Shown here: positions 365 through 50,300 of the stretch, piece after piece | Layout of the letters: every line of letters starts with the position of its first letter | Numbering within the stretch: position 1 is the stretch's first letter | NCBI RefSeq assembly: GCF_026151205.1 | Contig: NC_087077.1 | Coordinates: forward strand, 5,146,001-5,210,000 | Direction of reading: 5' to 3' | DNA: 64,000 nt | From: Bolinopsis microptera | Taxonomy: Eukaryota; Ctenophora; Tentaculata; Lobata; Bolinopsidae | Translations under genes and position numbers: made by a program | Notes under the pieces: generated by a model | The model's input: only the letters and a program-made list of their open reading frames with translations | Told to the model about the DNA's origin: nothing | Databases searched by the model: none

Positions 365-367
365 TCA
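362..367 (-). promoter_or_regulatory. Candidate stop-codon readthrough site TGA-CTA between gag and pro
   Basis: Gag ends ...AGA-TGA-CTA-TAT and the protease continues in frame. UGA followed by CUA is the best known efficient readthrough context in viral and animal mRNAs. The arrangement suggests Gag-Pro is made by occasional suppression of the stop rather than by frameshift. A single point mutation in a decaying copy would look the same. Confidence 0.55.
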
Positions 368-1219
368 TCTTCTGTCATGGTTGTTCCGCTTTGGAGGGAA
401 CTTCTTATTCCTAGAGGTTCTCTTGGAGGGGCAACTCTCCTCATCGTGTCCTTTTCCACCACAACAGCTACAGACTCTTTGATAACATGTTGCTTTAAGG
501 TGACCTGTCTTCTTACAGATATCACATATTGGTCTGTCTTTTTTTTCAAACTTACGATCTGACTGGACAGCATACATTTCAGTATCCTCCTCATCTGTCA
601 CTTCTAACCGTGAACGAAGCTGATCCACCTCCTTCAGTAACTCCCGAGCCCATTGAGGTACCTGCTCTTCTTGCTCTACCGGGAACGCAAATGTTTCACT
701 AGTCGAAGCCTCTGAACTTGCTGAATTCTTTTGAAGCTTTTCCATACAGTCTTTGAAAAAGCTGGCTACACCGGCTGCATCTAGTTCGCTTTTGATTTTA
801 TCTTTCTTACACTCAAACAGCTTCTTCCCCCCGGGTACGTTTGTCAGAAACCGCATGATGAAGACATCAGATGGGATCTTAGCACGCCTGGCTAACTCGT
901 CCAGTTGGAAGAAATAAGACCGTATCCCATCCATCGAAGTATTAACCGGCAGCAAGTTGAAAAATGTCATGCTTTCGGTGAACTGACATGGTGGGCCATC
1001 AATGAGATCTTCAAGGAACTTAAAAGCTGTTTTCACATCTTCCTCTTCTGATGCGGTGAATGCGAGCTGCTTCTCTCCCTCAGTCCGGTGAATATAAACT
1101 GGTAAACATGCAAGCTGCTGTTCAGGTTTAAGGGTTGCTGTAGCCGCTAAGAAAACCTTCTGAAACTGTGCGATTTTCTGGCCTTTAGCCAGATGAGGAA
1201 TTTCAATTGCTGTAATCAT
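365..1219 (-). CDS. LTR retrotransposon Gag with two CCHC zinc knuckles
   Basis: This is a 284-codon Gag-like ORF on the minus strand. The N-terminal two thirds look like a capsid-type helical region of Ty3/gypsy or related elements. Near the C-terminus are two zinc knuckles of the form C-x2-C-x4-H-x4-C (CDICKKTGHLKATC and CSCCGGKGHDEESC), which bind element RNA during particle assembly. The ORF ends with a basic tail and a TGA at 365-367. The same frame continues beyond the stop into an aspartic protease at 1-364, so this is the 5' end of a gag-pro-pol unit that leaves the window on the left. I could not place an LTR or primer-binding site upstream (1220-1400). The clade, gypsy/Mag or another, is not settled. 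Confidence 0.85.
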   Translation of the reverse strand: MITAIEIPHLAKGQKIAQFQKVFLAATATLKPEQQLACLPVYIHRTEGEKQLAFTASEEEDVKTAFKFLEDLIDGPPCQFTESMTFFNLLPVNTSMDGIRSYFFQLDELARRAKIPSDVFIMRFLTNVPGGKKLFECKKDKIKSELDAAGVASFFKDCMEKLQKNSASSEASTSETFAFPVEQEEQVPQWARELLKEVDQLRSRLEVTDEEDTEMYAVQSDRKFEKKDRPICDICKKTGHLKATCYQRVCSCCGGKGHDEESCPSKRTSRNKKFPPKRNNHDRR

Positions 1220-1397: not shown

Positions 1398-2809
1398 TAT
1401 ATAGGACTGGAAATATATAGCCTGACATCACAAGAGCTCAGAGAGGTATGCAAGCAGGAGCTGAAGCAATCAACAGCAAATCTGCAGCATTCCTCAGAGC
1501 ATCCACTGACCATCCCTGGATTACAAGAGCTCAACACCCAGGTTGTAACCCAGCTGCCCCCACACAGTCGCCCGCCTGTCTCTAAACACACTCTCGATTT
1601 TATTGATGAGGAGACAGAGAAGGATCTCATAGAACTGCTTGATTCTCGCACATCTGAGTTCAAGAATGAGAATGGACGATCTGTTCTGGCTTTTGGAGAA
1701 AGATATCACTACACTGGCACAAAATCATCACCCTCATCAGACCAACTGCCAGACCAACTCCAATCACTCATAACACAACTGAACAATGATCATCCAAACT
1801 CTCCACCTGTCAACAGCATTCTCATCAATCGGTATGATGGTCACTTAAGCTTCCTTCCACAACACTCAGACAACGAACCCCTCATTCACCCTGACTCATC
1901 AGTACACACACTTTCACTAGGTCACCATTGCACAGTCACTTTCACCAAGACTGGCACCACAGAACCCTATCACAACCAGTCTTGTCCACCACGATCACTA
2001 TACACTATGACCAGGGCAAGTCAGGATTTGTACGAACACAGAATTGAACCAGGATCTGTCGACTCCGGTGTCCGATACTCTGTGACCCTCAGATCTGTTA
2101 GTGCTCTAAACCGTGCTTCTACATGCATCATGGGAGATTCGAACACTGGTGGACTTAAATTTGGACTTGATCCTAAGAGATCCTTTGGAAAGTTCCTTCC
2201 TGGAAAACAAGTCTTCGCACCTACTGTAGACCACATTGACCCATACGAATCCTGCGGCTACAAAAACACTGTCATTCTCTGCGGACTCAATGATATTAGG
2301 CAGGATAATGTCAAAACTCCATCTGACATCAAACAAGTGTTCAATAAATTTACTAGTAAAATTGCTGAAATTCAAGCTGTCAATAAAAAAAAACTAATGT
2401 TTATATATGTCCGCTGCTGCCAACTAAATGTATTGATTTAAATAGAAGAGTTAATTTCTTTAACTATCTGATTCAAACCCAGCTTCTCCCTTTCAACTTT
2501 GGTGTGAGACTGGTAGAAGGGTTTCCAAGCTTTGCTGATGAGAACGGGCTATTAAGCCAACACTTGTCAAAAAGGTTGACGAAGTTCCAGAAACCTGATT
2601 ACTTACACCTCAATTGGAGGGGGGTTGCAAAGTTAGCAGCAATCATTAAAAATACTATTCTTCTTAGAGTTAATGGTGGTCGAGACAGACGCAGAGCTGG
2701 ACGAGGGGGGAATCAGGTGGACTCCACATCATTTCGTGACATAACTGCACGCTCTCTTCCTGCTGACAAACGAGTATCTGGTGCTCCTGACGGCTACCAA
2801 CCGTCATGA
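1398..2809 (+). pseudogene. LINE ORF1: AlkB-like 2OG-Fe(II) dioxygenase plus SGNH hydrolase, one frame break
   Basis: The frame is open from 1398 to 2441, then resumes one frame back (frame 2) through 2809. The AlkB signature is complete: a GERYHYTG substrate-loop motif, H-x-D at 1863-1871 (HSDNEP), the distal iron-binding His at 2037 (YEHRI), and R-x5-R at 2073-2093 (RYSVTLR) that grips 2-oxoglutarate. AlkB enzymes remove methyl groups from nucleic-acid bases oxidatively. Directly after it comes an SGNH-hydrolase core: block I GDSN at 2133-2144, block III GLND near 2283-2294 and block V D-x2-H at 2597-2608, the catalytic set of esterase domains known from CR1 ORF1 proteins. The break lies at or just after a run of nine A (2385-2393). 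The first in-frame ATG is 2007, inside the AlkB domain, so the true N-terminus is missing. Confidence 0.8.
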
Positions 2810-5523
2810 CTACTCTAACTAAAGAGGTATGTAAACACTGCTGCAAGGGTATCTATGTGGGCCAAGCCATAGTCGAGTGTTCCGAATGTAACCATGCAAC
2901 TCATCATAAATGCTACAATATTGTCAATACCGATTTATGCGGTAACTTTCTCTGCAATACATGTGTAAATCTTGCTGTTAAACGATACAACCCGTTCAAA
3001 TATGATATCTCTGACGAAGAAATCGATCTAGACGATACGATAACTAAGCTCTCGCAAATTTTAAACTGTTGTTCTCAGCTTAACAGAAGTCAAATTAATC
3101 AAACTCTAGAAACTTTAACCGAAGGTCAAATGTCAATGATGTTTCAAAACATAGACGGTAACAAAAGTAACTTTGATACTATGTGTATAGATCTTCGCCG
3201 ATATAACAAAAAGTTTTCCATAATTGCACTTGCTGAAACAAATGTAGGACCTGAATTAAGTAGTTTGTATCAATTAACCGAATACAATAGTTTTTACCAA
3301 GCAACCTTTCGAGAGAAAAAGAAGGGCACCGGAGTTGCAATTTATATCCACCAGTCACTAAATGCAACAATCGATAATACCCTCTCCTATGTAAGTGAAA
3401 ACCTAGAAATCCTATTTTTAAGATTCAACAATGGTAACTCAAGCACCTTTGTTGGAGTTTTATACCGCCCTCCGAGTGGCAATTTTGACTTAGCGCTAAG
3501 TGAACTAGCCGACACTCTGGACAAAGTCCCCAGACACTCGTATATAGCTGGTGACTTTAACATCAATCTTCACGGCGACAGCAACAAGGTTGCTAAATAT
3601 GAACACGTTCTTTACAGTCGAGGCTTCTATCCTCTCATATCTGTAATGACCCATGAAAAACCCGGCTGTATTCCTTCATGCATCGATAACATCATTACCA
3701 ATGATTTAGACAACATTATAACATCTGGCACATTCAAAGACAAAATCACACATCATCACCCCATATTCTTAGCACTCAACACACACCTTGACCAGAACGA
3801 TTGCAAGATTAAGTATGAACAGTTTTATGACTACTGTAACTCTAACGTAGATAAGTTCACCGACAAACTATCCAATAGTCTTGATAACACTGTAATAAAT
3901 TGTTTTGATACCTTTGCTGACACATTTAACGTTGCTTTTGACGAATGTTTCAAGTTAGAAACCCCGAAATGTACAAAACGCACTATGCAAAACAATCCAT
4001 GGATTACACCAGCAATTATAACATCAATAAATCACTGTCACGAACTATACGAAAACTGGGTCAAAGCTCGCAAAGTCAAGTGCAATCTAGGAGATACTGA
4101 CACAAAAGGTGGCTTCTGTCACTGCGCAGTATGTAACAAAAAGCGCAGTGAGTACTTAACTTATAAATATTATAGAAAAGAACTCAAAGTTATACGTGAA
4201 AAGGCTCAAACTTCGTACAATATGGGTAAATTTAATGAAGTTCAAGGTGACAGTAAGAAAACATGGCAACTAATCAATAAGATACGCGGCAAAGGGAAAC
4301 GAGAAATTAAACCCCCGTTTGTTATTAATAATGAGAAAATAATGAACCGTAGAATTATAGCTAACGAATTTAATAATTACTTTGTATCTCTTGCCCCTAA
4401 GTTGAATGAATCATACAGTACAACCGGTCAAATTAGACTAAGTCCAATTCAATGCTTTACGGACTACTTACCAAGGCCAAATACCTCAAGTATATTTCTC
4501 AGCGATTGTACACCAGAAGAAATAGAGAAAATCATTAGCGAACTCAAGAATGGAAAAGCTAGTGACATCCCTATTCACGTCATCAAACGAACGTCTAAGA
4601 TTATAAGCCCACTCCTGTCAGTATTATTTAATGAACAAATGAGAAATGGAACTTTTCCAGACCGACTGAAAATTGGTAAAATTAGCCCTATATACAAAAA
4701 AGACGGTACAGAATATCTCGAAAACTATAGGCCAGTATCTACCCTAGCTGTGTTCGGAAAGTTATTTGAGAAAGTAATCTACTCCCGTTTGTACAGTTTT
4801 CTTGTGTCGCAGAACGTTTTGTTTGAGAACCAGTTTGGTTTTAGGAAGAGTCACTCAACTAACCACGCCCTTAATTACTCAGTTGACTATGTAAACTCCC
4901 ATATAAAGGAAAAGCAACATGTATTAGGTATCTTTATCGACTTATCAAAGGCATTTGACACTATCAGTCACGATAAACTTCTCATAAAACTTGACAAATA
5001 TGGTATAAGAGGTAACGCAAACGAGCTTATTGGAAGTTACCTATCTAACAGACAGCAGTACGTTTCAGTTTTAGGTGAGGAATCTGATAAACTCCCTGTT
5101 ATTTGTGGAGTACCACAAGGTAGTGTTTTAGGACCGCTACTGTTTATAATTTACATAAATGATATCTATAACTCATCAGACCTAGGAAAATTTATACTTT
5201 TCGCTGATGACACCAATATATTTGTAGTCGACAAATCTGTCCAGAATCTCTACCAAAAAGCTAATACTATAATGAATTCTGTTTACAATTATATGAAATG
5301 CAATCTTCTCCACATTAACATCAAGAAATGCTGTTACATTCACTTTACACCAGGAAAGAAGGATGTAACTAGTAGTAGTAGTGATAGTAATGATCTTATT
5401 TTAACGTTGAATAACACAGTCATTAAACGTGTTGATGAAACTAAATTCCTCGGCGTTATTATAGATAAAAACCTTAACTGGAAACCTCATACAGTCATAC
5501 TGCATATCTTAGTTCTAAATTAA
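2806..5523 (+). CDS. LINE ORF2: PHD-like finger, endonuclease, reverse transcriptase
   Basis: 905 codons opening with ATG at 2806, which overlaps the ORF1 stop as ATGA. Residues about 5-55 form a Cys/His cluster of PHD type (pairs CKHC, CSEC, HHKC, CNTC). Residues about 110-330 are an endonuclease/exonuclease/phosphatase fold with NIDG, LAETN, YRPPSG, AGDFNIN and DNIITND motifs and a terminal HHHP. The reverse transcriptase follows ([50 protein letters not shown] with the catalytic ADD). The order and motifs fit CR1-like elements, which nick target DNA and prime reverse transcription there. The frame ends early at 5523 because of an 8-base insertion at about 5488-5500; the C-terminus continues in another frame. 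Confidence 0.9.
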   Translation: MTTLTKEVCKHCCKGIYVGQAIVECSECNHATHHKCYNIVNTDLCGNFLCNTCVNLAVKRYNPFKYDISDEEIDLDDTITKLSQILNCCSQLNRSQINQTLETLTEGQMSMMFQNIDGNKSNFDTMCIDLRRYNKKFSIIALAETNVGPELSSLYQLTEYNSFYQATFREKKKGTGVAIYIHQSLNATIDNTLSYVSENLEILFLRFNNGNSSTFVGVLYRPPSGNFDLALSELADTLDKVPRHSYIAGDFNINLHGDSNKVAKYEHVLYSRGFYPLISVMTHEKPGCIPSCIDNIITNDLDNIITSGTFKDKITHHHPIFLALNTHLDQNDCKIKYEQFYDYCNSNVDKFTDKLSNSLDNTVINCFDTFADTFNVAFDECFKLETPKCTKRTMQNNPWITPAIITSINHCHELYENWVKARKVKCNLGDTDTKGGFCHCAVCNKKRSEYLTYKYYRKELKVIREKAQTSYNMGKFNEVQGDSKKTWQLINKIRGKGKREIKPPFVINNEKIMNRRIIANEFNNYFVSLAPKLNESYSTTGQIRLSPIQCFTDYLPRPNTSSIFLSDCTPEEIEKIISELKNGKASDIPIHVIKRTSKIISPLLSVLFNEQMRNGTFPDRLKIGKISPIYKKDGTEYLENYRPVSTLAVFGKLFEKVIYSRLYSFLVSQNVLFENQFGFRKSHSTNHALNYSVDYVNSHIKEKQHVLGIFIDLSKAFDTISHDKLLIKLDKYGIRGNANELIGSYLSNRQQYVSVLGEESDKLPVICGVPQGSVLGPLLFIIYINDIYNSSDLGKFILFADDTNIFVVDKSVQNLYQKANTIMNSVYNYMKCNLLHINIKKCCYIHFTPGKKDVTSSSSDSNDLILTLNNTVIKRVDETKFLGVIIDKNLNWKPHTVILHILVLN

Positions 5524-6164
5524 AGTGTGAAGTCGGTAAACTCTGCCGTATGAGAAGATTTATACCTAAAGAGCTGTATAATGACCTCTACCACACCCTC
5601 TTCGAATCTCATCTAGGATATGGGATCTCAGTGTGGGGAGGCATATCGAACAATAGGCTTGAACCAATATTTAAAATTCAAAAAAAGTGCACTCGTATTC
5701 TATTTGGTGATCAAGAGGCATACAGTAATAAGTTCAAAACATGTGCTAGAACCCGCCCAATTGGATCCCAAAAACTCGGAGCCGACTTCTATAAACGAGA
5801 ATCAAGTAAACCCCTTCTCAGCAGAAACAAAATACTCTGCGTGCATAATTTGTATAAGTACCACTGTCTACTTGAAATGTTTAAAATAATCAAACTTCAC
5901 ACTCCAATACCGATGTACAATTTATTTCAAAAGTCACCCCGACGTGATAACTACTTTATTAACCCCGCTGCAACCAATTTGTTTGTATATAAAACCTCGA
6001 ATATGTGGAATAAATTCCTTAAACCTTCTAGTAAGATTGACTTCTCGTCCCCAATTGCACTTGTTAAAGGTCGCATTAAAACTATGCTACTCAATGCTCA
6101 AAAAGCTGGAAACACTGATGAATGGTCAGAACTCAACTTTGATGGAAATGACATGTGCCTATAA
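5496..6164 (+). pseudogene. LINE ORF2 C-terminal domain, shifted out of frame
   Basis: This frame continues ORF2 after the break. It reads HTAYLSSKLKCEVGKLCRMR and runs into the region at 5550-6164, ending MCL-stop. The segment is the usual CR1-type post-RT region (HLGYGISVWGG, KIQKKCTRILFG, SNMWNKFLK). At the junction CATACAGTCATAC contains a repeated CATAC. Removing eight bases would rejoin the frames, so this looks like a simple small duplication. Confidence 0.75.
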
Positions 6165-9100
6165 TTAAGAACACACAAACTAGTCCATATAGATTTCATA
6201 CTACACACACAAAATAACACACACAATACACACCACAGTCAAACATAGAAACTATATATTCACGCATATAACACAAAACACTGATCAGCTCATCCGCTTT
6301 ACACTAGTGTCTGGACTTGTCTGGAGTGGTCGTCTGGAACGTGGGACGGACTCACAAATATATTGTGTAAACGTAGCGCGCGAAACTTAAATATTGTATA
6401 ACTCTATCATTTCATTACCCAGCGTGATTTATTGCGCCAGAATAATGAAATGAAGCCGCGCTATATCCGTGAACCTACAGTGACTTATATTTTATATTTT
6501 GTATCTCTTACTACGTAACGCGAAATTAAGTTGTATCACACTCCCGGTTTTGGACCCCAATGTTAACCTTGCAGCAACTGTGTCAGCCCAATATACTCTA
6601 GAAGTATGATCACACTTATTTTAATGAACAAAAGACCCATAATTAATATAATCAGATACTCGTCAACAGCAGCAATTTCCTTACGTGTGATGTGTTGTCC
6701 TTCTTCTTTCTGTGTCCCCGTCGTTTTGTTTTGTGAAATGTATCGTAGTAATGTTTTAATATTTAAATCGAACGCAACTCAATAGTTAATAATAACAAAC
6801 ACAAATACTATTTTAAATAATTGATTAATATCGATTTATATACGAACCAAACATTAATTAATCTTTAATAACCTTTTATATATGTGTTAAACGATCCAGG
6901 GCATATCTAAAATTCGATAATGAACTTCATATATTATTAGTGCCGCGTGCTGACAAATATTCTGGGAATCAATCCACCCAATCGTGGCGATAACATATTT
7001 TTGTGCTTGGCCGGTTTTAGGTTTGAGTTTGTGCTCCAAAAGTGGTAAATCGGGTGCTAGTAAAGCTCTTGCAGGCAACTGGCTCCTTTTGCCAATTGCT
7101 TTTGGTTTAAGCGCTGACTCACATTTGGAACTGGCACTGGTATAATTGTAATATCCTACGAAGTCAGCATGCTATATTATTTTGCAAAACTCGTTTAATA
7201 TCTTGACAATATTTACAGTTTTAAAAAGTAGTAGTGCAGTAAAAATAGAAGAATTAGATATAAATTTGGAGCCAGTTCTTTAAACTGGCTTACTTAAAGG
7301 GTGTTTATAAATTTTATGTAGTTTTCTATTGCATTTATATTGAATTTTTATATAGGGTAATTGTTATATTATGTGTATATTGTTTGAATTTCTTCTATAT
7401 TTACAGTTTATGGTTTTAGGTTAAGGCGCGGCGCACGCACCGCTTATAGGTTATAGCTCATTCAGCTTCTGTTTTCAGCGCTGTGTTGCTACACACTGTA
7501 TAGCATGTGGGTCAAGCGCGGTGCCGCGCCTAAACAGCAAAAGAGTTATTTATTTTAAAATTTATTTTTGTATCTCAAAAATGATGTAAAGTTTTTAATA
7601 TGACGAAGAATTAAAGCTATTTCCGTACAGCCTAAGTGCTAAGCATGCTCGTTAGAAAAACTATGAACAATGAACATAACATGCTAGCTTTCTTTATTTT
7701 GTAAGTCGCGTCGGCTGACATCTTGGGTTGTACTGGATGTAACATGTTTATTATCGGATGTCTACTTATATTTATTATGATATCATTATTCATTGTTATG
7801 GCAATAAAATTTAAATTTTGTTTTACTTAAATTTTGTTTTACTTACTTACTATGCTATTATTATTATTATCTATATTATCATTAGAAGTATAGTGAGATT
7901 CGAATTTTTAAGATCACGGTCATTGCTCTTTTTGATCTGAACGACTAATAGTGCTATGAAAATAACAAACTTTGACACAAACTTAAAGCCTGTGCCCTGT
8001 TTATTGATTTATTGAATTGTCATTTTTACTCAGATTGAATCAATATTATTTTGATACTTGTACCATATAATTGTGTTATTTTTTTCCCTGCTCTTGCCGA
8101 AGGCAAAAAGATCGTAGGGAATAAGTAATCGGGTTTGGATATATGAGGTGGCCCGACGGTCCTGCGATGTCGACAAAAGTCTGCTCCTTCGCAATATAGA
8201 CCACTCCCCTATAATTATGAGTATAGGAAGCGTCTGTTATACTGCGCGCGACGCTCGGCATGTGTTAGTTAATTGCAGTATCCAACGCGAATTTCAACTG
8301 TCAAACGATGCCGTTCAAATTAAATTAGCCCAAAACTTGTGCGCGGCGTACTAAATCCTGCACGCGCGTAATGAAAAATTACGATGAAAAATTACGATGA
8401 AAATATTGCAAGTTTTTAACAACAAAATAATCCAATATCTAATTTTTATTAATCGATAAAATTAACTTTTCGTTGCAAATATTAACGGTTTAAGCAGGGA
8501 AAATTAATCGTGGGTGGTGTAACCGCGGCGAAATTCTTGTTAGTTATATTTTTGAGTGTGTCTAACCTTACAGTCAATAACCATTACTGAATTTATTTGT
8601 TTGTATTTTTTGTATGAATTTTGCATGTCTTTGCTCTTGTAGATTTTTACATTGTTGCTTCCTTGTGTGTTTGTTGACCAGACGTAACCTAGCTCGAACA
8701 CAGACCAGGGCAAGCCCGACTTTCCATTCTAGAATTGTCTGGGTTGAAACGAAGTTAACCCTTTCCTGGATCATCAGCCAACAAGATCCACGGACATGGG
8801 ACCCTTTACTTTGCTAGGAAATAATCTTCAGGGAAACAAAAGCAGTAGGCAGGCTCTTTTTCATCTCACATAAAGTCCACAAAGTCGTATCGAGGCACAT
8901 CTAGTATAAGTCAGCTACGCTACAGCACAGTGTGGTTTCATAGAAGTTTGCCTGTTGGCGCCCCCGCCGAAAATGCTCCCCCCTGTTGGCGCCCCCTCCC
9001 ATTTTGTGGCCCCTCCCTGAAATTAAACAAAGCAGGTAAAATCTTTAAAAAAGTGTGTTTCTAGAGCAAAACACGCAGTTTCGATAGTACCTCAGTTAAG

Positions 9101-12600: not shown

Positions 12601-15600
12601 CTGCACAGCAGATTGAAGTGTCTTTATATTATTTACTATTTATATTGTGTTACTGTGTAAATTTGATTATAAAACTGCTACTGTGTTGATGCTCTTGGAC
12701 TTGAGTGCAGCCTTTGATACTGTGGATCATAATTTGTTACTCCGTATCTTGAGGCAAGAAATTGGAATCAGAGGAACTGCTCTTAGCTGGTTCACCAGCT
12801 TCCTTAAAGGACGATGTCAGCGTATTAGACTCGGCAAATCCGTCTCAGAAACAATAACTATCCGATTTGGAGTACCTCAGGGCTCTGTTTTAGGCCCAGT
12901 ACTCTTTAACATCTATATCAGATCGTTATACAGATGTGTCAAAGAATCCAGTTTCTCCATTATTGGTTATGCAGATGATCATCAAATCATGAAATCTTTC
13001 AAACCCTCTGATCAGGTCAAAATCTTATCCAACCAACTGAGAAATTGCTTCTTGAGTATAAAGAATTGGATGTCTCAGTACTATCTGCAACTAAATGATT
13101 CTAAAACACAACTCATAGTTTTTGGACCTAAGAAAGTGCTCAATGAGATAGAACTTCATGGGGTTGAGATAGCTCCTAACACTTTGGTAATGTTTGTGCC
13201 TACTGTTAAGAACCTTGGATTAGTTATGGACAATCGGCTGGTATTTGATAAACAGATCGTAAATCTCAAGAAGAAATGTTTTCATACATTACGTAATATC
13301 AGAAAGATCAGATTTCTACTGAGTCCCAATCAGATTAAGATCATCGTGAACAGTCTAGTAGTGTCATGTCTAGATTACTGTAACGGTTTGTACTTTGGTA
13401 TTGGCGAGAAGCTTCTGCATCAGCTCCAGTTACTTCAGAATGCTGCTGCAAAAGCTGTCACTGGTAAATATAAACATGACCATCTTGATGATGACCTGAT
13501 AAAGCTTCACTGGTTAGATGTAAAGAAAAGAATTGTCTTCAAAATCTTACTACTGTCTCACAAGTCACTGTTAGGATTGACACCAAATTATCTACAAGAC
13601 ATGTTCAAGTATGCTCATCATGGTCACTCATTGAAGCTTATTGTTCCTTCTTGTAATTCAAAGTTTGGTGAGCGTAGCTTCTCTGTAGTGGCTCCAAAGA
13701 TCTACAATCGTCTGCCTGTTACCATCACCTCAGCTCAATCTTTGGAATGTTTTAAAGCTTTTCTTAAAACGTACCTTTTCAAACTGTCCCCAGATGAACT
13801 TGAAAAACTTTATCGATAACTATTCTGGTCATACTTTATATTCGGTCTTTGCATAATAAATTTAATTACCGTTTTCGGGCTTTAGTATTGACGTTATATT
13901 TTCAAGCATAAGTTATCTTTTAGCTCAGTATTCATGATATTTTCTGGGATGATTAGTTCAAACACTGCTGAGTGTAAGTTTTATCTTAAAAGCGGTGTTA
14001 TTAAATTTCAATTTATTATTATTATAACTCTAATTCTAATAATCCCCTAGAAAGCAGCTGAAAGTGTGTTAGAGTTTGTTAGAGAAGCTGTAGCCAGGTT
14101 TGAGAACCTGCAACCCAGTATCATAGAGAAACTTCTCAACTCTCTTCCCTCTATTAAATCTATATCTGTTCTTCACGTGAGTTAAGTTTGTATTATTTGT
14201 GTTTAGCTGTGTCATAACTGATCACGACCTTATAAAAATAAAACTATTTTCTAATTTTTACATTTGTAAACAAGTTAAGGTTTAAAGCAGGGACAAAAGG
14301 ATTTCGCGGCATGTACGAAACCGCGAAATTTCCCTTTCTCCGCGACAAATCGCGATTTTTTATGTTTTCCGCGACAGACCGCGAAATCTCCCATTCTCCG
14401 CGACAAATCGCGATTTTTTCAGTTTTTCGCGAAAAATCGCGCATTTTCCTTTAAATCTGAAGACCAAATTTGTGCATTATCTTTTAAATCTGGGGACCAA
14501 ATTTGCGCATTTTCCTTAAAATCTGAGGACCAAGTTTGCGTATTTTCCATAAAATCTGCGGGCCAAATGTCACGTTTTCTACAAGTATATGAAACCAATC
14601 ACATTTTCAGCCTTCCGTGAGTTCTGATTGTAGGTACATTCTCGATACATATAACATAAGAACATACCTCTGAAAGTGAAGGCGGAGCTCCCGCTTCCGA
14701 GCTCATATTGCGAAAGGCCAGGGAGGCCTGCCTTCCGAGATCGCATTACAAGGGGAGCCCTCGAGTCCAATATCGTGTATCGAAGGGTATGTGTGACCTT
14801 TGAAAAACGAAAAAATTTTTTCGGCTCATAATGATCAGGGTAGCATGAAACATGAACAAAAGTAGTTTCCAGAAAAACTTTGAAAAAATTTTGACTTAGA
14901 AAATTTTCGGTCCGAGTCATTCTCGATACATACTTCTGAAGGCGGATCTCCCGCTTCCGAGCTCATATTGCGAAGGGGAGGCCTACCTTCTGAGATCGCA
15001 TTACAAGGGGAGCCCTCGAGTCCAAAATCGTGTATCGAAGGGTATGTGTGACTTTTGAAAACCGAAAAAATATTTTTGGCTCATAATGATCAGGGTAGCA
15101 TGAAACATGAACAAAAGTAGTTTCCAGAAAAACTTTGAAAAAATTTTGACTTAGAAAATTTTCGGTCGGAGTCATTCTCGATACATACATCTGAAGGCGG
15201 ATCTCCCGCTTCCGAGCTCATATTGCGAAGGGGAGGCCTGCCTTCTGAGATCGCATTACAAGGGGAGCCCTCGAGTCCAATATCGTGTATCGAAGGGTAT
15301 GTGTGACTTTTGAAAACCGAAAAAATATTTTTGGCTCATAATGATCAGGGTAGCATGAAACATGAACAAAAGTAGTTTCCAGAAAAACTTTGAAAAAATT
15401 TTGACTTAGAAAATTTTCTGTCCGAGTCATTCTCGATACGTACATCTGAAGGCGGAGCTCCCGCTTCCGAGCTCGTATTGCGAAGGGGAGGTCTGACTTC
15501 CGAGATCGTATATGGAAGTTGACCAGTAGACATATAAAACTTGACCAGACGACATAAAGTTGACCAGTAGACATATAAAACTTGACCAGACGACATAAAG

Positions 15601-18600: not shown

Positions 18601-21600
18601 AGAGTTTCAGTTTATATTTAGAAACTAACCATACTATCTTTTAGATTTATGTCACTCATGATGGCTCCGGCTGAAAGTACTATGACTCATTTTATTTAGA
18701 AGATCGTAGTTTCATTGCTTCTGAAGTACCTATCAGTTCGCCGGTCAATGTTGGGTATAATACTCTGGTGATAACTCCATTCTTAACTATTCCCTTTTCA
18801 GGTATATCAGTTGACTGGGTTCTCTGATCCTATATACGCTGAAGCGTACATCAACGTGAACCAATACGACATAGTATTAGATGTACTGGTAGTTAACCAG
18901 ACCCCTGACACCTTACAAAACCTTACATTAGAACTCGCTACACTCGGTGATCTTAAACTTGTGGATAAACCATCTCCTATCACTCTTGCTGGCAACGACT
19001 TTTGTAACACTAAAGCGCAGGTTAGTTTGGATCTATGCTTAGAAATATGCTGCAGTTTCCTTTAACATAGAGAAACAATCGTCCAGAGATGTCTCAAAAA
19101 CTATCAAAATTGTCCTTCTGGTGGTCTCTAATAAATATCTCGCTTTTGTAACGCGCAGTGACAGAAACACTTACATTTCACTCTACTACGTGGAGCGCGC
19201 ACAACATTTCATTATTGTGGCTTTGTAGATTTAAATAAATCTATTCTCAGGTCAAAGTTGCATCAACTGAGACGGGTATAATATTCGGAAATATCGTATA
19301 TGATGTGTCAGGAGTCAGCGGAGACAAGAGCTGTGTTGTTCTGAACGATATTCACATCGACATCATGGATTACATCGTACCTGCTACTTGCACTGATACC
19401 GGTTAGTTTATAGAAGATAAATCTTCTATCATGGTGCCTTTAAATAGGTTCCGTTATCATACGAAATTAGACTATGGGAAGTGGGAGTTGAACTATGATT
19501 CCGCAAGATCCTTTCAGAATTTTTTTGTATGGAGTGAACTTATCTTCTAAAATAACTTTTTGGTCATTGCTCTGTGTAAGGTCATTGCTAATATTAGAAC
19601 ACCTATAAATTAAAGCGAAAAAATGTAGAATGTGTTTTGTGATTCTGGAAAGATCTCTCTCAAAGCAAAATACGAATATATCTGAAATTTCAATGTTCTT
19701 CAATGGATATAATGGAATATTTGAACAATTCAGTATAATAAAGCCGTTTAAAGAAATGTTCCAGTTTTTAAGCTTTCTTCTAATTGTTCCTAATTGGATC
19801 TACATACAACTCGTGATGTCCCTTCTCTGAAAGCTAACAGCTTGAAGTTATTCCAACGACAACTGAAGCAATCTCGAGGTCGATACCATTTCCAGATTTA
19901 TTTTCCTTGTGGATTGTCTGATGGGATATCATTCTCCCCACATCTGCAACTAATAATTCCCATTACAAACACTCTGAAACCCTCATTAAAATAACAGTAC
20001 GCCAGCGGTGACAGTGTCATATCAATAGTGATCATGTAGTTTATAACACGGTACCAAGTGTAGTGTTTCTGTTTTGACACCACAGCGTATATTGTTACTG
20101 GAAGCCAGGAGATTATCAGGAGGATGGACAGACAGATAATCATTATCAGTGTGGTCTTGTGGACTACTTTAGCGTTTTTTAGTACGATCAGTATAAGTCC
20201 TATGTTACAAATGATGGTGAGGAGGAGAGGAAGGGCTGCGTAGAGCAGGAAGTTTACTTTATCTATCTTCATCCAGAGTTTATTGCCCATTCTGTTCGGC
20301 ATATGGCATCTGAAAAAATATTACACTTAACTGTACTAAGTCGAATAAAATATACGATAAATTTGATGGGATGTTAAACGGTTGCTCTACCTGTTTATAC
20401 TGGTATCGAACTGGTAACCTCTGTCTAAAACATAGTTCTCCACAGTAGGGAAACAGGAAAGTAACCATACTCCAACCATGATAACAATCCCTGATCGCTT
20501 GCTGGGGAAATGTTCGTTAGGGAATTGGGGATATAAAATCTAATTTTTGATCTGTTCAGCCCTGCTTTGTAAAATTTTTCTATCAAAGTACCTGAGTGTA
20601 CAATAAAGTACCTGAGTGTACAATAAAGTACCTGAGTGTACAATAAAGTACCTGAGTGTACAATAAAGTACCTGAGTGTACAATAAAGTACCTGAGTGTA
20701 CAATAAAGTACCTGAGTGTACAATAAAGTACCTGAGTGTACAATAAAGTACCTGAGTGTACAATAAAGTACCTGAGTGTACAGTAAAGTACCTGAGTGTG
20801 CAATAAAGTACCTGAGTGTACAATAAAGTACCTGAGTGTACAATAAAGTACCTGATTGTACAGTAAAGTACCTGAGTGTACAATAAAGTACCTGAGTATA
20901 TAATTAAGTACCTGAGTATACAATAAAGTACCTGAGTGTACAATAAAGTACCTGAGTGTACAGTAAAGTACCTGAGTGTACAGTAAAGTACCTGAGTGTA
21001 CAATAAAGTACTACATGAGTATATAATTAAGTACCTGAGTGTGCAGTAAAGTACCTGAGTATATAATAAAGAGCCTTGAGCGGGAACATGCACCTCAGTA
21101 TTTTATTCAGTGAGAGGAGCGTCAGAGAGAACAGGTGTACTATAGCGTACCAACTAGCAGAGTTACTGGACAAACTGCACAGTATCCTACCAAACAGCCA
21201 CCTGCAGTATTTTTAGAAATCGATCAAATGTTCAACCGTCGTGAGTTCATTTTAGCACCCCTTATATGGGCACCACGTGACGGGAGTTCAATTTCGTGAT
21301 TTTAAGTATGTGTTTAAATCAGGATCCTGGCCAGTGTCCAACCTCTGAAAGTGTACGAGCTCTGAGATTTTGACATATAAAATCCCGATCTCTTACCTGT
21401 TAGTGAAGTTGCTTGATACTGAAGGAAGAACCACTGTTAGAATATAAAGCAGATCAGAGATTGACATGTTAACTATGAACCAGAGTGAAGTTTTGTCTAT
21501 CTTGAAGTGTTTCAAATGAACTGCAGTGATAAGTAGGATGTTTCCAACTCCCCCTACAAGCACTGTTACTAGGCTCCAGCTACCCAGGAGGTAACGCTCC

Positions 21601-35769: not shown

Positions 35770-36780
35770 TACCAACAACACCCTAGGGGATCCCTTCCTA
35801 CTCTATATGGGCATGAAGGAGACACCTCTAGACTTCCAGTCCTGTAGAGAGTGTGGGAGGCATTCCCCTGTCATCCTCTTTGATGTGAAAGCAATAGATA
35901 AAGGCTCTGACGGCAAACCTGATGTCTACCCCATACAATTTGATGACTTGTGGAACATCGATCGTCAAGCAGAAAACCGGATCTAACGTCATCAACGGTA
36001 TGCTTGACATGATTAAATTAATCAAGAAGGGGACACTGAGATAACGGGTGGAGAGGATAATAGAACACAACACAGATCACTATTCGTTCACTAAAAAGTT
36101 TGTACAGATTGCTGGGAAGAGTGGTGGACTTCTCACAGTCATGTGTCCACATGGAATATGTGTAGGGTTTAAGGTCCTCTGCCTGCATGAAGGGGCATCG
36201 GATTACGTTCAGTTCCTTAGATCATGGCAGCATATTCCGTCAATATCTGTTGTGGTCTTTAATTCCCAAGTGGCCAGACATGCCGAGAAGCAGTTCCCTG
36301 GTATGCTGCCACCATACGGAGGAAAGCTGGCAGACTCTTCAAAACCGGAGATCCCGCAATTCATCAAATTCGGCGGCGTTATAAACTTCGATGAGCTGTT
36401 GAACCACAAAGTTCAATCTGTGAAATCCAACCCTAGAGACCATCCTGTAACCAAGTGAAGCCACAAGTTACCATATTTATGTCCATAATCAAAGATAGAG
36501 ATTCGGCGGAAAGACAGTGCAGGCTGAGCGCCGCCCAGTAAGCCATAAGTACATCTTATTTGACAGATTTCATTCGAGGTGAATTTAAAAAATCCATAAG
36601 ATATATTTCATCGCTTGAATATTTGTGCACAGCTGCTACGGAATAGAATAAACACATCAATTTGTGAGCAAAATCACAAGGAGCTTAATAGGTACAGATA
36701 TTCATTATATAACATGTCGGGGATGAACTTACTGCTGTCGGTTACATTCATACATCTTATGAGAAACGGCTGCACGAATT
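35770..36780 (+). pseudogene. Decayed transposase (KDZ/HMGXB3-like)
   Basis: Several frames carry pieces of one protein in order. First comes CRECGRHSPVILFDVKAID near 35845-35905. Then comes the 136-codon ORF 36048-36458 with SGGLLTVMCPHGICVGFK, EGASDYVQFLRSW and the RHAEKQFPG region. Then comes NTSICEQNHKELNRYRYSLY to IHLMRN near 36650-36770. The C-HG core, the E-x3-D stretch, a strand ending with a (here changed) Asp, and a late EQ-N helix resemble KDZ-type transposases and the transposon-derived half of HMGXB3. There are at least two frame breaks and intervening stops, so it is dead. An RTE-like LINE begins right after it. The family call is from memory of motif patterns and is tentative. 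Confidence 0.4.
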
Positions 36781-38283
36781 CCAGGCCCCCCTATTATTAG
36801 GGGTCAGATCATACTTACTTACTTGATACTTGATAAGGTCTCCTCGATCATTCGAGTGGCCTGCACCAAGGAATTGCCGCTTATGTCGTATCATCTCTCT
36901 CCAGTGCTTGCGATTTCCTGCCAACTCTCGGACCTTATCAAATACAATGTCTGGATCTCCTGTAAATGTCACTGCGTCTTCCAGGACACAGGTTCGCCAA
37001 TTCTTTCTTGGCCGCCCACGTGATCTTCGGCCGTGAGCAGGTGTCCAGTCAAGTAGATACTTTGGTAGCCTGGTGTCCGGCATTCTAGAAACATGTCCAA
37101 ACCAGCGAAGACGGTTGGCACTGATGTTGGTTATAACCGGGTTTATTCTTGCCCGCTCCAACACTTGAACATTGCTCATCCGGTGGAACCATTTAATTCG
37201 AAGGATTCTCCACAAACAGTTTTGATGGAAAACTTCGAAGCGATGTAGTTGCTTTGAAGTAGTGTTCCAGACTTCGCTTCCATAAAGTAATATTGTTAGA
37301 ACCGCTGCAACATATATCCGTATTTTGGTGTTAGTTTGGATATTGCGATTCTTCCAAATATTACCGAGCTGATTGAATGCTCCTGAGGCTTTCTGGATCC
37401 GTGCAGACAAGTCCCGGTCAATAGTCCCATCACTTGATATAATCGACCCAAGGTAAGTGAAGTTGCCGACTTGCTGGATAGCCGTGTCTCCCACTGTAAT
37501 GTCCACCGTTGATGCTTCAGTATACGGCCTCTGTGATGTATTCTTGCCGATGGCCATAACCTCTGTTTTCTTCGCATTGATTCTGAGGCCAGCCTGAGCC
37601 GCATACTTGCATAAAAGATCAGTCGTCTCCTGGAGACCGTCCTTGGTGTTGTCCATGATAGCCAAATCATCTGCATAGTCAGTATCCAAGACGACTGTAT
37701 CCTGACCAAAGCTGGTGGTAGCTCTCTGCAGCACTGCCCCGTGTGACAACACTTTGTTATTCTCAGCCCGCTGCGCAGGCAGGTTGATGCAAACATTAAA
37801 GATAGGTGGACCCTGAATATCCCCCTGCCCAGAACCAGATGTAACGTCAAACCAATCTGAGAGCTCACCATTATGTCTGACAGAGCTGACGGTGCCGCAA
37901 AAGAATGCTTGCATTATGCGAATGTATTTACAAGGCAAGCCATAATGACTGAAAGCTTTCCAGATAAACTCCCGATTAAGTGAATCGAATGCAGCTTTAA
38001 AGTCAACAAAATTTAAGTACAGGGGGAGGTTAAACTCAATGCTGTTGTGAATAATAGTACGGAGCGAATAAATCTGATCAATGCAAGACCTTTTTTTCCT
38101 GAACCCGCACTGATTCTCTCGGAGCAGTTCTTCAAGCCCCGCATTCATCCGTCGCAACACTATTATCTGATAGAGTTTTGATGCCGTGGAGCGTAGGGTT
38201 ATGCCCCTGTTGTTCGAGCAGAATGATGTATCACCCTTTTTCGGGACAATAACAATGATACCATTAACCCAATCCTCTGGCAC
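36757..38283 (-). CDS. RTE-like LINE reverse transcriptase and C-terminal domain
   Basis: 508 codons. The RT has GIIVIVPKKGD, NNRGITLRSTASKL, LRENQCGFRKKRSC, NFVDFKAAFDSLNRE, SGSGQGDIQGPPIFN and the catalytic DTDYADDLAIM. The C-terminal region has TILLYGSEVWN, RLRWFGHVSRMPD and GRRSRGRPRKNWRTCV. The last residues, after about 36830, read through the AAGT tail into flanking DNA, so the natural stop has been lost or lay at the tail. It copies element RNA into DNA at the target site. Confidence 0.88.
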   Translation of the reverse strand: MPEDWVNGIIVIVPKKGDTSFCSNNRGITLRSTASKLYQIIVLRRMNAGLEELLRENQCGFRKKRSCIDQIYSLRTIIHNSIEFNLPLYLNFVDFKAAFDSLNREFIWKAFSHYGLPCKYIRIMQAFFCGTVSSVRHNGELSDWFDVTSGSGQGDIQGPPIFNVCINLPAQRAENNKVLSHGAVLQRATTSFGQDTVVLDTDYADDLAIMDNTKDGLQETTDLLCKYAAQAGLRINAKKTEVMAIGKNTSQRPYTEASTVDITVGDTAIQQVGNFTYLGSIISSDGTIDRDLSARIQKASGAFNQLGNIWKNRNIQTNTKIRIYVAAVLTILLYGSEVWNTTSKQLHRFEVFHQNCLWRILRIKWFHRMSNVQVLERARINPVITNISANRLRWFGHVSRMPDTRLPKYLLDWTPAHGRRSRGRPRKNWRTCVLEDAVTFTGDPDIVFDKVRELAGNRKHWREMIRHKRQFLGAGHSNDRGDLIKYQVSKYDLTPNNRGAWNSCSRFS

Positions 38284-47349: not shown

Positions 47350-50300
47350 ATGAATTGCTTCAACAAGCTGGACCTGGCTTGGTCTCAAGGGTATGACGGA
47401 CAAAGGTTGAAGTTCATTGACAAGAAAACTGTCATATCAGTGTGTGGCTGTATGATGAAGTTTATTGATACTACCACTGGTAAGGAGAAAAGCCACCGCA
47501 GTGGAATCAATCCATATGGTGCATTCACTGTAAATCCAGCTTCTGATCTTATTGCATACGCTGAGAAGAAGCTCAACCCTTCTATCCAAATTATAACTTT
47601 TCCTGAATTTGAACCCTCTGGTGTGCTGAAGGATGGCTGTATGATGGAATATGTTGATATTGCTTTCGCTCCCACTGGAACGTACATTCTTACTTGTTCT
47701 AGTCTACCGGATTTTAAACTGAGCTTGTGGGATTACAGCTCAGGCACTATGTTAACCACTGTCAATGTCAAATCTCATCCTGGTAATTCCATATCCTTCA
47801 ATCCTCTTAACTGGAAACAAATAAGTGTTACTGGCGACCAAAGCTTTCACATAGGGAGTATTGAAACTTCAAACGAAAAGTATGGCATCAAGTTGTCGAC
47901 AATTGATTTGCCAGACCCTACAGCAGTTCTTGGACCTGTGGCAGAGCAGAAAGACATATACCTAAAAAAGTTTGTCCCATCACCAATACTGACCGCAGAG
48001 AGTGTAAAGATTGCATCAACTCTTAGTCCTCTGCACAATAAATACAAAGACAAGCTGAAGAAAGTAGCACCCGTTTCCCATTGCTGGGCGGTAGGTAATT
48101 GTGTTTATGTGGGCTGTACTGACGGTCAATTACTGCATTATGATACAACATCCTCAACAATGTCCGTTCTTACCAATCCACTGGCCAACAGCAAGGGCTC
48201 ATCAAACACTGATTTGAAAATAAAGGAAGAGGACGAAGACGATAAGCTTGACTCTGCTCAAAAGATCCTAGGTAAAGGTGATCTAGAAACTATTGAGTAC
48301 TACCAAGACGGTTTATTTGTTTGTGGTGCCAATGGAAAGTTGAGGCTGCTTAGTCTAGATATTGTATCACCCGATGTTCTTGATTGTTGGGATACAAAAT
48401 CTGTCATTTCTTCCCTGGCATGGTCTACTGCTTATGACAAAATTCTATTGGGAAGTCCTAATGGGATTGTATTCTCTCTGTTTCCCTCAAACAAAAATGC
48501 TGACTTGAACACGCTGTTTAATGTCAAGTGTGGTCCAATGGTTGGGGTTGACTTCGTATCCCCAACCAACAGTCAAATAATCTCTTGTCGGAAGAATGGA
48601 ATTGTTCAAGTTTGGTCTGCTGAAACTGCAGCTCAATTAAGCAGTCTGCAGCTGGGATCAGAGGTTGCAAGCCTGGCATGCTGCCAATCATCCCGATCTG
48701 CATTCATTGGATTAAGCAGTGGGCAACTTGTTGTCCTGGATCTAAACACTCCCGAGTCTCCCAGGATCATATTTGAGGACAAGATTCACCGTGGTTCAAT
48801 TCAACATATTACTTTTGACATGAGTGGAAAACTTCTGTTTACTGGCTCCAACGATGGACATGTTATCATTCTAGATACAAGAGCCTCAAACAAGTTCAAA
48901 TGCTTGGGACACATTGATATCAAAGGAGAAGTTACTGGAATTGCATCACTGCATCAATTGAAGGTTGAGAAAGAATGGTGTTACCTTGCTATTTCTTCGG
49001 TCAATGACAAAGGTTCATTTATAACACATGCTAAGATACCAGTAGATTTGCACCTCCAGCCAAAGGAAGCATTTGATGATGATACATTCCACATGGATCC
49101 TAACTTCATCGTTCGTACTGATGCCCAACTTGATTTCGTAGCTTCTAGTGTTGCAATGGTTAGCCCTCGTAACATGGTCACTGTAGATGCAGCCAAGAAA
49201 AAGGTCGTTGTTTTTAACTTGACTAATGATGGAAAGATAGCCGTGACTGAAAAGGTCAATGGTCATCTCCTTAAAGGTGGTTCAGTCGTCATTTCACCGC
49301 ATGGAAAATGGATCGGATCATTTTCAGCTGATGGGCAAATCATCTTCAGGAGTGTCGAGGACGCACAAAATAGTGTCTCTATTCCTTGCCATTCTCACTT
49401 TCTTGGCGGGACATCATTCCTAAAGTTTGCCAACGATGGTCAACAAGTTTTGAGTTGTGGAAAAGATGGTGTCATCGCCCTTTGGAAATGGAATTATGAT
49501 AGCCTTGTAACCGAAGAAAAAGCTATTGTTTTAGGAGCAGTTGATGCCTCTCGAGGACGATATGCATCTCTATTAGGTTTGAGAAAGGAGCAAGATGCTG
49601 TCCTTCAAAATATGACTGCATTGTCTGCCCTCAAGAGTCAGGACAAGACTTGGCTTGAGAAAGTTCAGGCTGGAGTCCAGGAACTCAAGGATAAAACGTT
49701 TGAGCCACAGATTGACGAGCTAAAGAAGAGTATAAGTGATTTAAGAGCTACTGTTCTTGGAATGATTGAAACCAACGGAAATGTGGATGATATTGAGCAG
49801 TTGAAGAGGCACGAATTTACTTTAGATGTCGATGAGAGACAGCGACTCTTGAATGAGGGAGATGATGAAATAGAAAGCATCAAAGAAAGTGTCGAGCTTG
49901 AAAACCTAGCGATGCTCTTTTTGAAAGAACTCATCAAGAAAGAATGCTGGGATGGGATGGAGGTAGTTGGCCGCTCACTGGTCCTTTTCTCTGGTGATCT
50001 CGAGGTAAGCAACTTTTCTATAAAAAAACGAACGGAAGCTGAACGAGCGGAAGTAGAGCGAGTCCTGGGAGTATATGCTCATGAGAAGCTGGAAGAAGAG
50101 GAAGTTGAATTTGCTCCAAAACCAAAAGATGACGAGGGTGAGCACGAAGAAGAGCAGGAAGTGTCTGCTTCTTTGTATGGCAGTCACGCTAAAAATTTTT
50201 ATGCTAAATCAATCCAGCATTCTCAATTCAACCTCCATTCTAACCAGAGGAAGAGAGATCAAATAGAGCTAATCAAACACACGATTGTACATCTAAAAAA

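What the first reader, a model, noticed from the sequence alone, without database searches (positions are those of the whole stretch)
1398..2809. LINE ORF1 that fuses an AlkB dioxygenase to an SGNH hydrolase
All AlkB iron and 2-oxoglutarate residues are visible (HSD, the distal His in YEHRI, and RYSVTLR as R-x5-R), together with a GERYHYTG motif. The frame then runs straight into an SGNH core (GDSN, GLND, D-x2-H). CR1 ORF1 proteins with an esterase are established. An AlkB demethylase in front of it, in an element whose ORF2 adds a PHD-like finger, is not something I know as described. AlkB domains in some plant RNA viruses repair methylated genomes. By analogy, this retroelement might strip methyl marks (m6A, m1A, m3C) from its own RNA or cDNA, or act on host chromatin marks. 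That role is inference.
Basis: partly seen in the sequence, partly recalled or inferred. Interest (0 to 1): 0.92.

Follow-up and report, generated by a model that had tools for sequence, protein, structure and literature searches.

The report
Jumping genes carrying AlkB repair enzyme
A family of copy-and-paste jumping genes in what looks like a comb-jelly genome encodes, in its first protein, a domain related to the enzymes cells use to undo methylation damage on DNA and RNA, joined to an esterase; its active site has been conserved, which suggests, though it is untested, that these elements repair or unmask their own genetic copies.

Summary
Window 1428-2809 is a 5'-truncated, frame-broken LINE copy whose ORF1 has an AlkB dioxygenase (Pfam E 4.6e-14) followed by an SGNH esterase. 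It is not a chance fusion: the genome holds at least 117 matching places. Opened intact copies have PHD-like finger - predicted coiled coil - AlkB - SGNH in ORF1 and PHD-like - endonuclease - RT in ORF2. Iron and 2OG residues are near-invariant in 76 homologues; AlkB dN/dS is 0.14-0.16 in three family pairs. Profile and fold lie nearest ALKBH2/ALKBH3 rather than ALKBH5. Of the 52 best ORF2 places, 38 have AlkB listed upstream; 12 of the other 14 were opened and look 5'-truncated. AlkB+SGNH also occur in other LINEs and a Helitron of this genome. Best reading: a self-encoded demethylase that keeps the element's single-stranded template readable for reverse transcription. Activity and substrate are inferred. 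Six answered paper searches listed no LINE-encoded AlkB by title or abstract start; five failed.

The parts
1428..2400 (+). ORF1, part left in this copy up to the frame break: end of predicted coiled coil, AlkB domain, first half of SGNH
   Evidence: 5' truncation at 1428; frame change near 2400
1563..2105 (+). AlkB (2OG-Fe(II) dioxygenase) domain, nearest ALKBH3/ALKBH2
1695..1718 (+). GERYHYTG, nucleotide-recognition lid motif (lid reading recalled from ALKBH2)
   Evidence: first Tyr 59 of 64, second Tyr 58 of 64 rows spanning it
1863..1877 (+). HSDNE: Fe ligands His and Asp
2037..2039 (+). distal Fe ligand His (in YEHRI)
2073..2093 (+). RYSVTLR: 2OG-binding Arg and second Arg
2133..2144 (+). 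SGNH block I, GDSN
2283..2294 (+). SGNH block III, GLND
2414..2809 (+). rest of SGNH and basic C-terminal tail, in another frame in this copy
   Evidence: continuous with the first part in L003
2597..2608 (+). SGNH block V, D-x2-H (DYLH)
2806..5523 (+). ORF2: PHD-like finger, EEP endonuclease, reverse transcriptase
   Evidence: RVT_1 1.1e-36, Exo_endo_phos 6.6e-7; finger only as C1_1 0.0078, below cut-off
5550..6164 (+). ORF2 C-terminal part in another frame (this copy is broken near 5500)
6165..7862 (+). 3' region shared with sister copy L031, not aligned at about 7222-7383

Best explanation
The window holds a dead, 5'-truncated copy of a recently active two-ORF LINE. Shown: in intact copies ORF1 encodes PHD-like finger - long predicted helix (coiled coil) - AlkB dioxygenase - SGNH esterase - basic tail, and ORF2 encodes PHD-like finger - endonuclease - RT; the AlkB active site is conserved and the domain is under purifying selection. 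Inferred: ORF1p multimers coat the element RNA; the AlkB domain takes the place that an RNA-binding domain holds in other ORF1 proteins, samples the bound RNA and the single-stranded cDNA, and oxidatively removes methyl groups on the Watson-Crick face (m1A, m3C and like adducts). Such groups stop reverse transcriptase, so the element keeps its own template readable until and during target-primed reverse transcription. The esterase gives lipid or membrane contact as proposed for ZfL2-1, and the PHD-like fingers steer the particle to chromatin.
Confidence: 0.6

Rival explanations
1. The AlkB is an m6A eraser: it strips m6A from the element's mRNA to escape m6A-based recognition or decay by the host, as proposed for the orchid Ty3/gypsy AlkB.
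For: An orchid LTR retrotransposon encodes an AlkB with m6A demethylase activity in vitro (PMC9289625, abstract and passages). ALKBH5 affects human L1 mobility (PMC7873242, abstract and passages).
Against: Profile and structure rank ALKBH2/3 above ALKBH5. In human L1, more ALKBH5 lowers mobility, so an eraser need not help.
Confidence: 0.2
2. The domain is used mainly as a nucleic-acid-binding scaffold for RNP assembly; catalysis is secondary or lost.
For: It sits between predicted coiled coil and esterase, where L1-type ORF1ps have an RRM; known esterase ORF1ps lack an RNA-binding domain (PMC3905857 section 13).
Against: Fe and 2OG ligands are among the best conserved residues of the protein, which binding alone would not require.
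Confidence: 0.1
3. The AlkB acts on host chromatin or DNA at the insertion site (for example 6mA or alkyl lesions), guided by the PHD-like fingers.
For: PHD-like fingers in ORF1 and ORF2; ALKBH2, bound to dsDNA in many entries, is the top profile hit.
Against: No element feature ties the activity to the target site; the PHD matches seen are below Pfam's curated cut-off.
Confidence: 0.08
4. Chance fusion or assembly artefact of this one copy.
For: This copy is 5'-truncated and frame-broken, so a chance junction was possible beforehand.
Against: 117 matching places in the genome, 108 without a stop inside the match; homologues in other assemblies including Mnemiopsis leidyi; ORF2 directly behind ORF1 in 29 of 30 loci.
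Confidence: 0.005

Closest known systems
Esterase-type LINE ORF1 proteins, for example ZfL2-1 and CR1 (PMC3905857, PMC4120745)
   Same: Coiled coil followed by an SGNH esterase in ORF1; profile hit to the LINE esterase 4c1b, E 7.2e-7 (a bacterial PAF-AH-like entry, 2hsj, is better, 2e-8); PHD fingers are known in CR1/L2 ORF1s
   Different: None of the ORF1 domains tabulated for 448 Jockey-superfamily elements is an AlkB (Table 1; the word AlkB does not occur), though some groups there have no domain hit; here AlkB lies between coiled coil and esterase
Orchid Phalaenopsis Ty3/gypsy elements with AlkB (PMC9289625)
   Same: A retrotransposon that encodes an AlkB-fold demethylase
   Different: LTR element with a separate ORF, ALKBH5-like and m6A-active in vitro; ours is a LINE ORF1 domain nearest ALKBH2/3, followed by SGNH
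Human ALKBH3 and ALKBH2
   Different: 17-22% identity; here part of a transposon protein. The genome also has single frames nearest ALKBH2 (L069, 3.9e-60) and ALKBH3 (L071, 1.2e-39)
AlkB domains of plant RNA viruses (m1A/m3C repair in RNA is recalled)
   Same: RNA-based replicon with an AlkB domain; viral AlkB models are matched by fold
   Different: Our element is a retrotransposon; sequence relation to viral AlkBs was not tested

Membership tests
AlkB (2OG-FeII_Oxy_2) dioxygenases | Profile match over curated cut-off | tested here: met
   53.5 bits against cut-off 31.2
AlkB (2OG-FeII_Oxy_2) dioxygenases | HxD...H iron site and R-x5-R for 2OG | tested here: met
AlkB (2OG-FeII_Oxy_2) dioxygenases | AlkB fold | tested here: met
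AlkB (2OG-FeII_Oxy_2) dioxygenases | Oxidative demethylation | not testable with these tools
   needs a bench assay
ALKBH2/ALKBH3-type enzymes | Nearest by family profile and by structure | tested here: met
   against: single-sequence search
ALKBH2/ALKBH3-type enzymes | Common descent shown by a tree | tested here: inconclusive
   22 AlkB domains of one genome, 179 columns, midpoint root, no other AlkB families
ALKBH5/FTO m6A erasers | Nearest by profile and structure | tested here: not met
   listed below ALKBH2, 3 and 6 by structure; not among 46 profile matches
SGNH hydrolases | Catalytic blocks: Ser, Gly, Asn, Asp-x2-His | tested here: met
   Ser 75 of 76, Gly of GxN 71 of 76, Asn 72 of 76, His 67 of 69, Asp 64 of 70
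SGNH hydrolases | Pfam profile over curated cut-off | tested here: inconclusive
   No hit in the window frames; 21 of 47 relatives at E 0.01; scores seen are below 32.9 bits; the database's own annotation lists PF13472 for 3 of 76
SGNH hydrolases | SGNH fold | tested here: met
Non-LTR (LINE) retrotransposons with APE-type endonuclease | ORF2 with EEP endonuclease and RVT_1 | tested here: met
Non-LTR (LINE) retrotransposons with APE-type endonuclease | 5'-truncated copies | tested here: met
   window copy starts at 1428; 12 of 12 opened ORF2 places without a listed ORF1 match end at differing points
CR1/L2 (Jockey superfamily) lineage | Placement by RT phylogeny | not tested
   no labelled RT reference set at hand

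The most novel reading that the evidence does not exclude
An ALKBH2/3-type demethylase plus SGNH esterase is a shared accessory kit of unrelated transposons in this ctenophore-like genome: LINEs with at least three dissimilar ORF2s and a Helitron (single 3388-aa frame SGNH-AlkB-DUF6570-Rep-PIF1) carry it, with more than one capture or exchange. What these elements share is a single-stranded replication intermediate, so the host would either impose methyl or alkyl marks that block copying as a defence, or suffer enough alkylation that mobile elements must bring their own repair.
Probability: 0.5. Interest if true: 0.93.

Novelty: new variant of a known kind. Interest (0 to 1): 0.87.

Why it matters
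Template repair or unmasking by a retrotransposon's own protein would be a new step in LINE replication. It would suggest how an esterase-type ORF1 can engage nucleic acid, and would make the question of whether methyl marks on RNA or cDNA restrain LINEs directly testable with one enzyme. The same domain in a Helitron points to a pressure shared by RNA- and ssDNA-based transposons, possibly an undescribed host defence. The genome holds many natural replicate families, useful for enzymology.

Tried and rejected
Chance fusion: rejected. Elements of the same ORF2 family without AlkB: looked for among the 52 places listed (only 50 of 6393 candidates were scored there, so this covers the best-matching part only). 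38 of 52 have a listed AlkB-ORF1 match upstream on the same strand within 4 kb (one is a second fragment of another, one has a 1.5-kb gap). Of the other 14, 12 were fetched: 6 keep part of AlkB with SGNH, 4 keep SGNH or part of it without AlkB (L032, L039, L041, L043; in L043 nearly the whole SGNH), 2 begin inside ORF2. None of the 12 has a full-length ORF1 without AlkB. I read all 12 as 5' truncations; break points were not mapped. 2 of 52 (C13 fragments) were not looked at. Relatives in phages, viral contigs and prokaryote contigs: none. RT clade not assigned. A wider protein search for distant relatives could not be made.

Papers. Answered searches: 6 (0 papers), 7 (2), 14 (3), 18 (18), 19 (11), 25 (0). 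No title or abstract start there tells of a LINE-encoded AlkB; apart from the four papers cited, only these were seen. Some searches failed, 98 met the cap, 15 was malformed. Paper reading failed for PMC7528939 and for a DOI on viral AlkB. Subscription journals and Repbase are not in the library, so prior description is not excluded. Conflict between sources: PMC4120745 finds esterase ORF1 in vertebrate groups only (abstract), PMC3905857 in many animal phyla (section 12).

Count notes. identities use 7 of 9 family-A loci (L009, L010, more diverged, dropped; also not the window copy), 11 of 15 family-B (L011, L013, L024, L025 dropped) and 4 of 5 family-C (L026 dropped). dN/dS: three pairs gave AlkB values; the fourth, A-B, was saturated; E-F SGNH was saturated. 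One search compared the 150 rows I took (which reports 151 matches and says more are unlisted) with the 117: no overlap within 1.2 kb. Of the places, 8 AlkB loci (L052-L059), Rep windows near 5 more (L063-L067) and three host-like genes (L069-L071) were opened; L068 came. The rest are unclassified.

Full report

It is a family. A protein search gave 76 relatives at E 0.001 among 1067 candidates; 72 of 76 carry PF13532 in the database's own annotation. Among rows spanning each site the Fe ligands are kept in 71 of 73, 72 of 73 and 75 of 76, both arginines in 75 of 76, SGNH Ser in 75 of 76 and SGNH His in 67 of 69; the exceptions are gaps, save Thr for the first His in P0041. All 47 relatives put into A2 match 2OG-FeII_Oxy_2, 21 of them Lipase_GDSL_2 at E 0.01. 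One relative is from Mnemiopsis leidyi (P0007); the ORF2 list has three more (P0102, P0104, P0105, best 120 of 4148 shown). Two contig lengths (408155 and 68238) occur in both lists, which suggests that ORF1 and ORF2 lie on the same contigs there too (inference).

In the window's own genome (264.65 Mb, 232 contigs) ORF1 gave 117 matches, a lower bound; 108 have no stop inside the match and 53 lie in open frames of 700 aa or more. Of L001-L030, 29 have ORF2 directly behind ORF1 (L010 does not); 22 of 30 show an ATGA stop/start overlap (L002-L009, L012-L025), and in L026-L030 the ORF2 ATG lies 13 nt before the end of ORF1, which suggests coupled translation (inference). Complete ORF1s of families A, B, C are 742, 712 and 720 aa from the Met I chose. 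Pfam finds AlkB in all three; SGNH (E 5.7e-6, 3.2e-6) and PHD (about 9e-4, below cut-off) in B and C but not in A, where they rest on alignment. The coiled coil is a long predicted helix. Eight more representatives (L044-L051) have AlkB, SGNH and ORF2, and seven of them the N-terminal part as well; in L044 that part is a PHD-like finger, endonuclease-like and partial RT-like sequence of another LINE, read by eye. L003 with L031 shows both ORFs open in one natural copy.

Selection and age. AlkB dN/dS is 0.138 (bootstrap 0.067-0.225) for B-C, 0.148 (0.077-0.264) for E-F and 0.157 (0.086-0.264) for G-H; A-B is saturated. The N-terminal part is looser in B-C (0.232) and G-H (0.276), and undecided in E-F (1.03, few changes). 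Within families A, B and C mean nucleotide identity over about 0.9 kb is 99.38, 99.81 and 99.77% (rows dropped are named under Tried and rejected), so they moved recently. Families are mosaics: B and C share 88% in the N-terminal part, 73% in AlkB, 89% in SGNH, 97% in the N-terminal part of ORF2; E and F 97, 90, 71, 71%; G and H 44, 90, 88, 93%. Still, AlkB distances follow ORF2 distances (r 0.78, 1 of 5000 permutations as high), SGNH-ORF2 r is 0.92 (0 of 5000), and N-terminal-ORF2 0.71 (11 of 5000).

Refutation test. Of the 52 ORF2 places listed (50 of 6393 candidates scored), 38 have a listed AlkB-ORF1 match upstream. Twelve of the other 14 were opened: 6 hold part of AlkB with SGNH, 4 hold SGNH or part of it only, 2 begin within ORF2. 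I read these as 5' truncations, the ends differing from copy to copy. No full-length ORF1 without AlkB was seen among them.

Beyond this LINE. PF13532 in the genome gave 151 listed matches; the 150 compared share no place with the 117 above. Three are host-like single genes (L069-L071); two were matched to named enzymes, ALKBH2 (L069, 3.9e-60) and ALKBH3 (L071, 1.2e-39). L057 and L059 resemble the window's LINE, with ORF2 37-39% identical. L054, L055, L056 and L058 have AlkB in ORF1 with weaker SGNH matches (E 0.001, 1.8e-5, 8.3e-6, 0.0077), and an endonuclease ORF2 about 22% identical to ours (L054, L055) or without a match at E 0.001 (L056, L058); RT was confirmed behind L055 (L061) and L058 (L062), not looked for behind L054 and L056. 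L068 (540-aa frame with AlkB and SGNH) is followed by endonuclease and RT frames. L053 (551 aa) has AlkB and SGNH; its ORF2 was not fetched. L052 continued by L060 is a Helitron: one frame with SGNH (3.3e-6), AlkB (9e-22), DUF6570, Helitron_like_N (1.2e-22) and PIF1 (2.9e-22). The five other giant AlkB frames looked at carry the same Rep domain at 56-100% identity. The Helitron AlkB is nearest ALKBH3 (2.9e-11). In a 22-row tree the Helitron and L068 AlkBs join (support 0.99) and the L058 AlkB falls with the host-like genes (0.97), hinting at more than one capture (179 columns, midpoint root, tentative). HxDxE and R-x-S-x-T-x-R are present in 11 of 11 representatives.

Mechanism. Shown: a conserved, constrained dioxygenase domain nearest ALKBH2/3 inside ORF1p, between predicted coiled coil and esterase. 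Inferred: it demethylates the element's RNA or cDNA at positions that block base pairing and hence reverse transcription. The orchid gypsy AlkB is ALKBH5-like and m6A-active (PMC9289625, abstract and passages); ours resembles the repair enzymes instead. Schneider et al. (PMC3905857; passages and sections 12 and 13) note that esterase ORF1ps lack structural RNA-binding domains; an AlkB there could supply one. The same accessory in a Helitron fits a need shared by single-stranded intermediates. That ALKBH2/3 act on m1A/m3C, that these marks stop reverse transcriptase, and that Helitrons move through ssDNA are recalled.

Known or new. Metcalfe and Casane (PMC4120745; abstract, sections 6 and 12, word search) list no AlkB among ORF1 domains of 448 Jockey-superfamily elements. 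Six answered paper searches showed no LINE-encoded AlkB in titles or abstract starts; five more failed, so an earlier mention is possible. I class it as a new variant of a known kind (a LINE with a new ORF1 type), with a bolder reading for the sharing with a Helitron.

Noticed in passing
L052:3382-9999 continued by L060:1-3846 (G000:C10): Helitron with a single 3388-aa frame SGNH-AlkB-DUF6570-Helitron_like_N-PIF1; five of five other giant AlkB frames looked at carry the same Rep domain.
   Followed up: partly
G000, list: Over a hundred further AlkB-bearing places in several frame-size classes (for example 551, 593, 611, 646, 676, 692-707, 777, 843 aa) that I did not classify.
   Followed up: partly
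L058, L062: A LINE whose 843-aa ORF1 AlkB groups with the host-like ALKBH2/3 genes, perhaps a separate capture.
   Followed up: partly
L044:159-3167: Chimeric frame: PHD-like, endonuclease-like and partial RT-like sequence of another LINE in frame with AlkB-SGNH (read by eye).
   Followed up: partly
L044, L045: Family D has SDSN in place of GDSN in SGNH block I; the Ser is kept.
   Followed up: no
L012/L029, L046/L047, L048/L049: Mosaicism between families: N-terminal, AlkB, SGNH and ORF2 segments have different divergences.
   Followed up: partly
window 365-1219 and 2-256, - strand: Gag-like frame with zinc-knuckle-like motifs and a protease-like frame next to the LINE's 5' end, read by eye; no Pfam hit for the gag-like frame at E 0.001.
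   Followed up: no
window 47350-52230, + strand: CFAP43-like gene as one 1626-aa frame without introns (CC_Cfap43 E 3e-238); unusual for an animal gene (recalled).
   Followed up: no
window 57471-61472, + strand: LTR-type pol as one 1333-aa frame: protease, RT, RNase H, integrase.
   Followed up: no
window 12647-13819 (+) and 36757-38283 (-): Two further RT frames of other retroelements.
   Followed up: no
window 20585-21071: 20-bp tandem repeat, about 24 copies, overlapping a 222-aa frame that is probably spurious.
   Followed up: no
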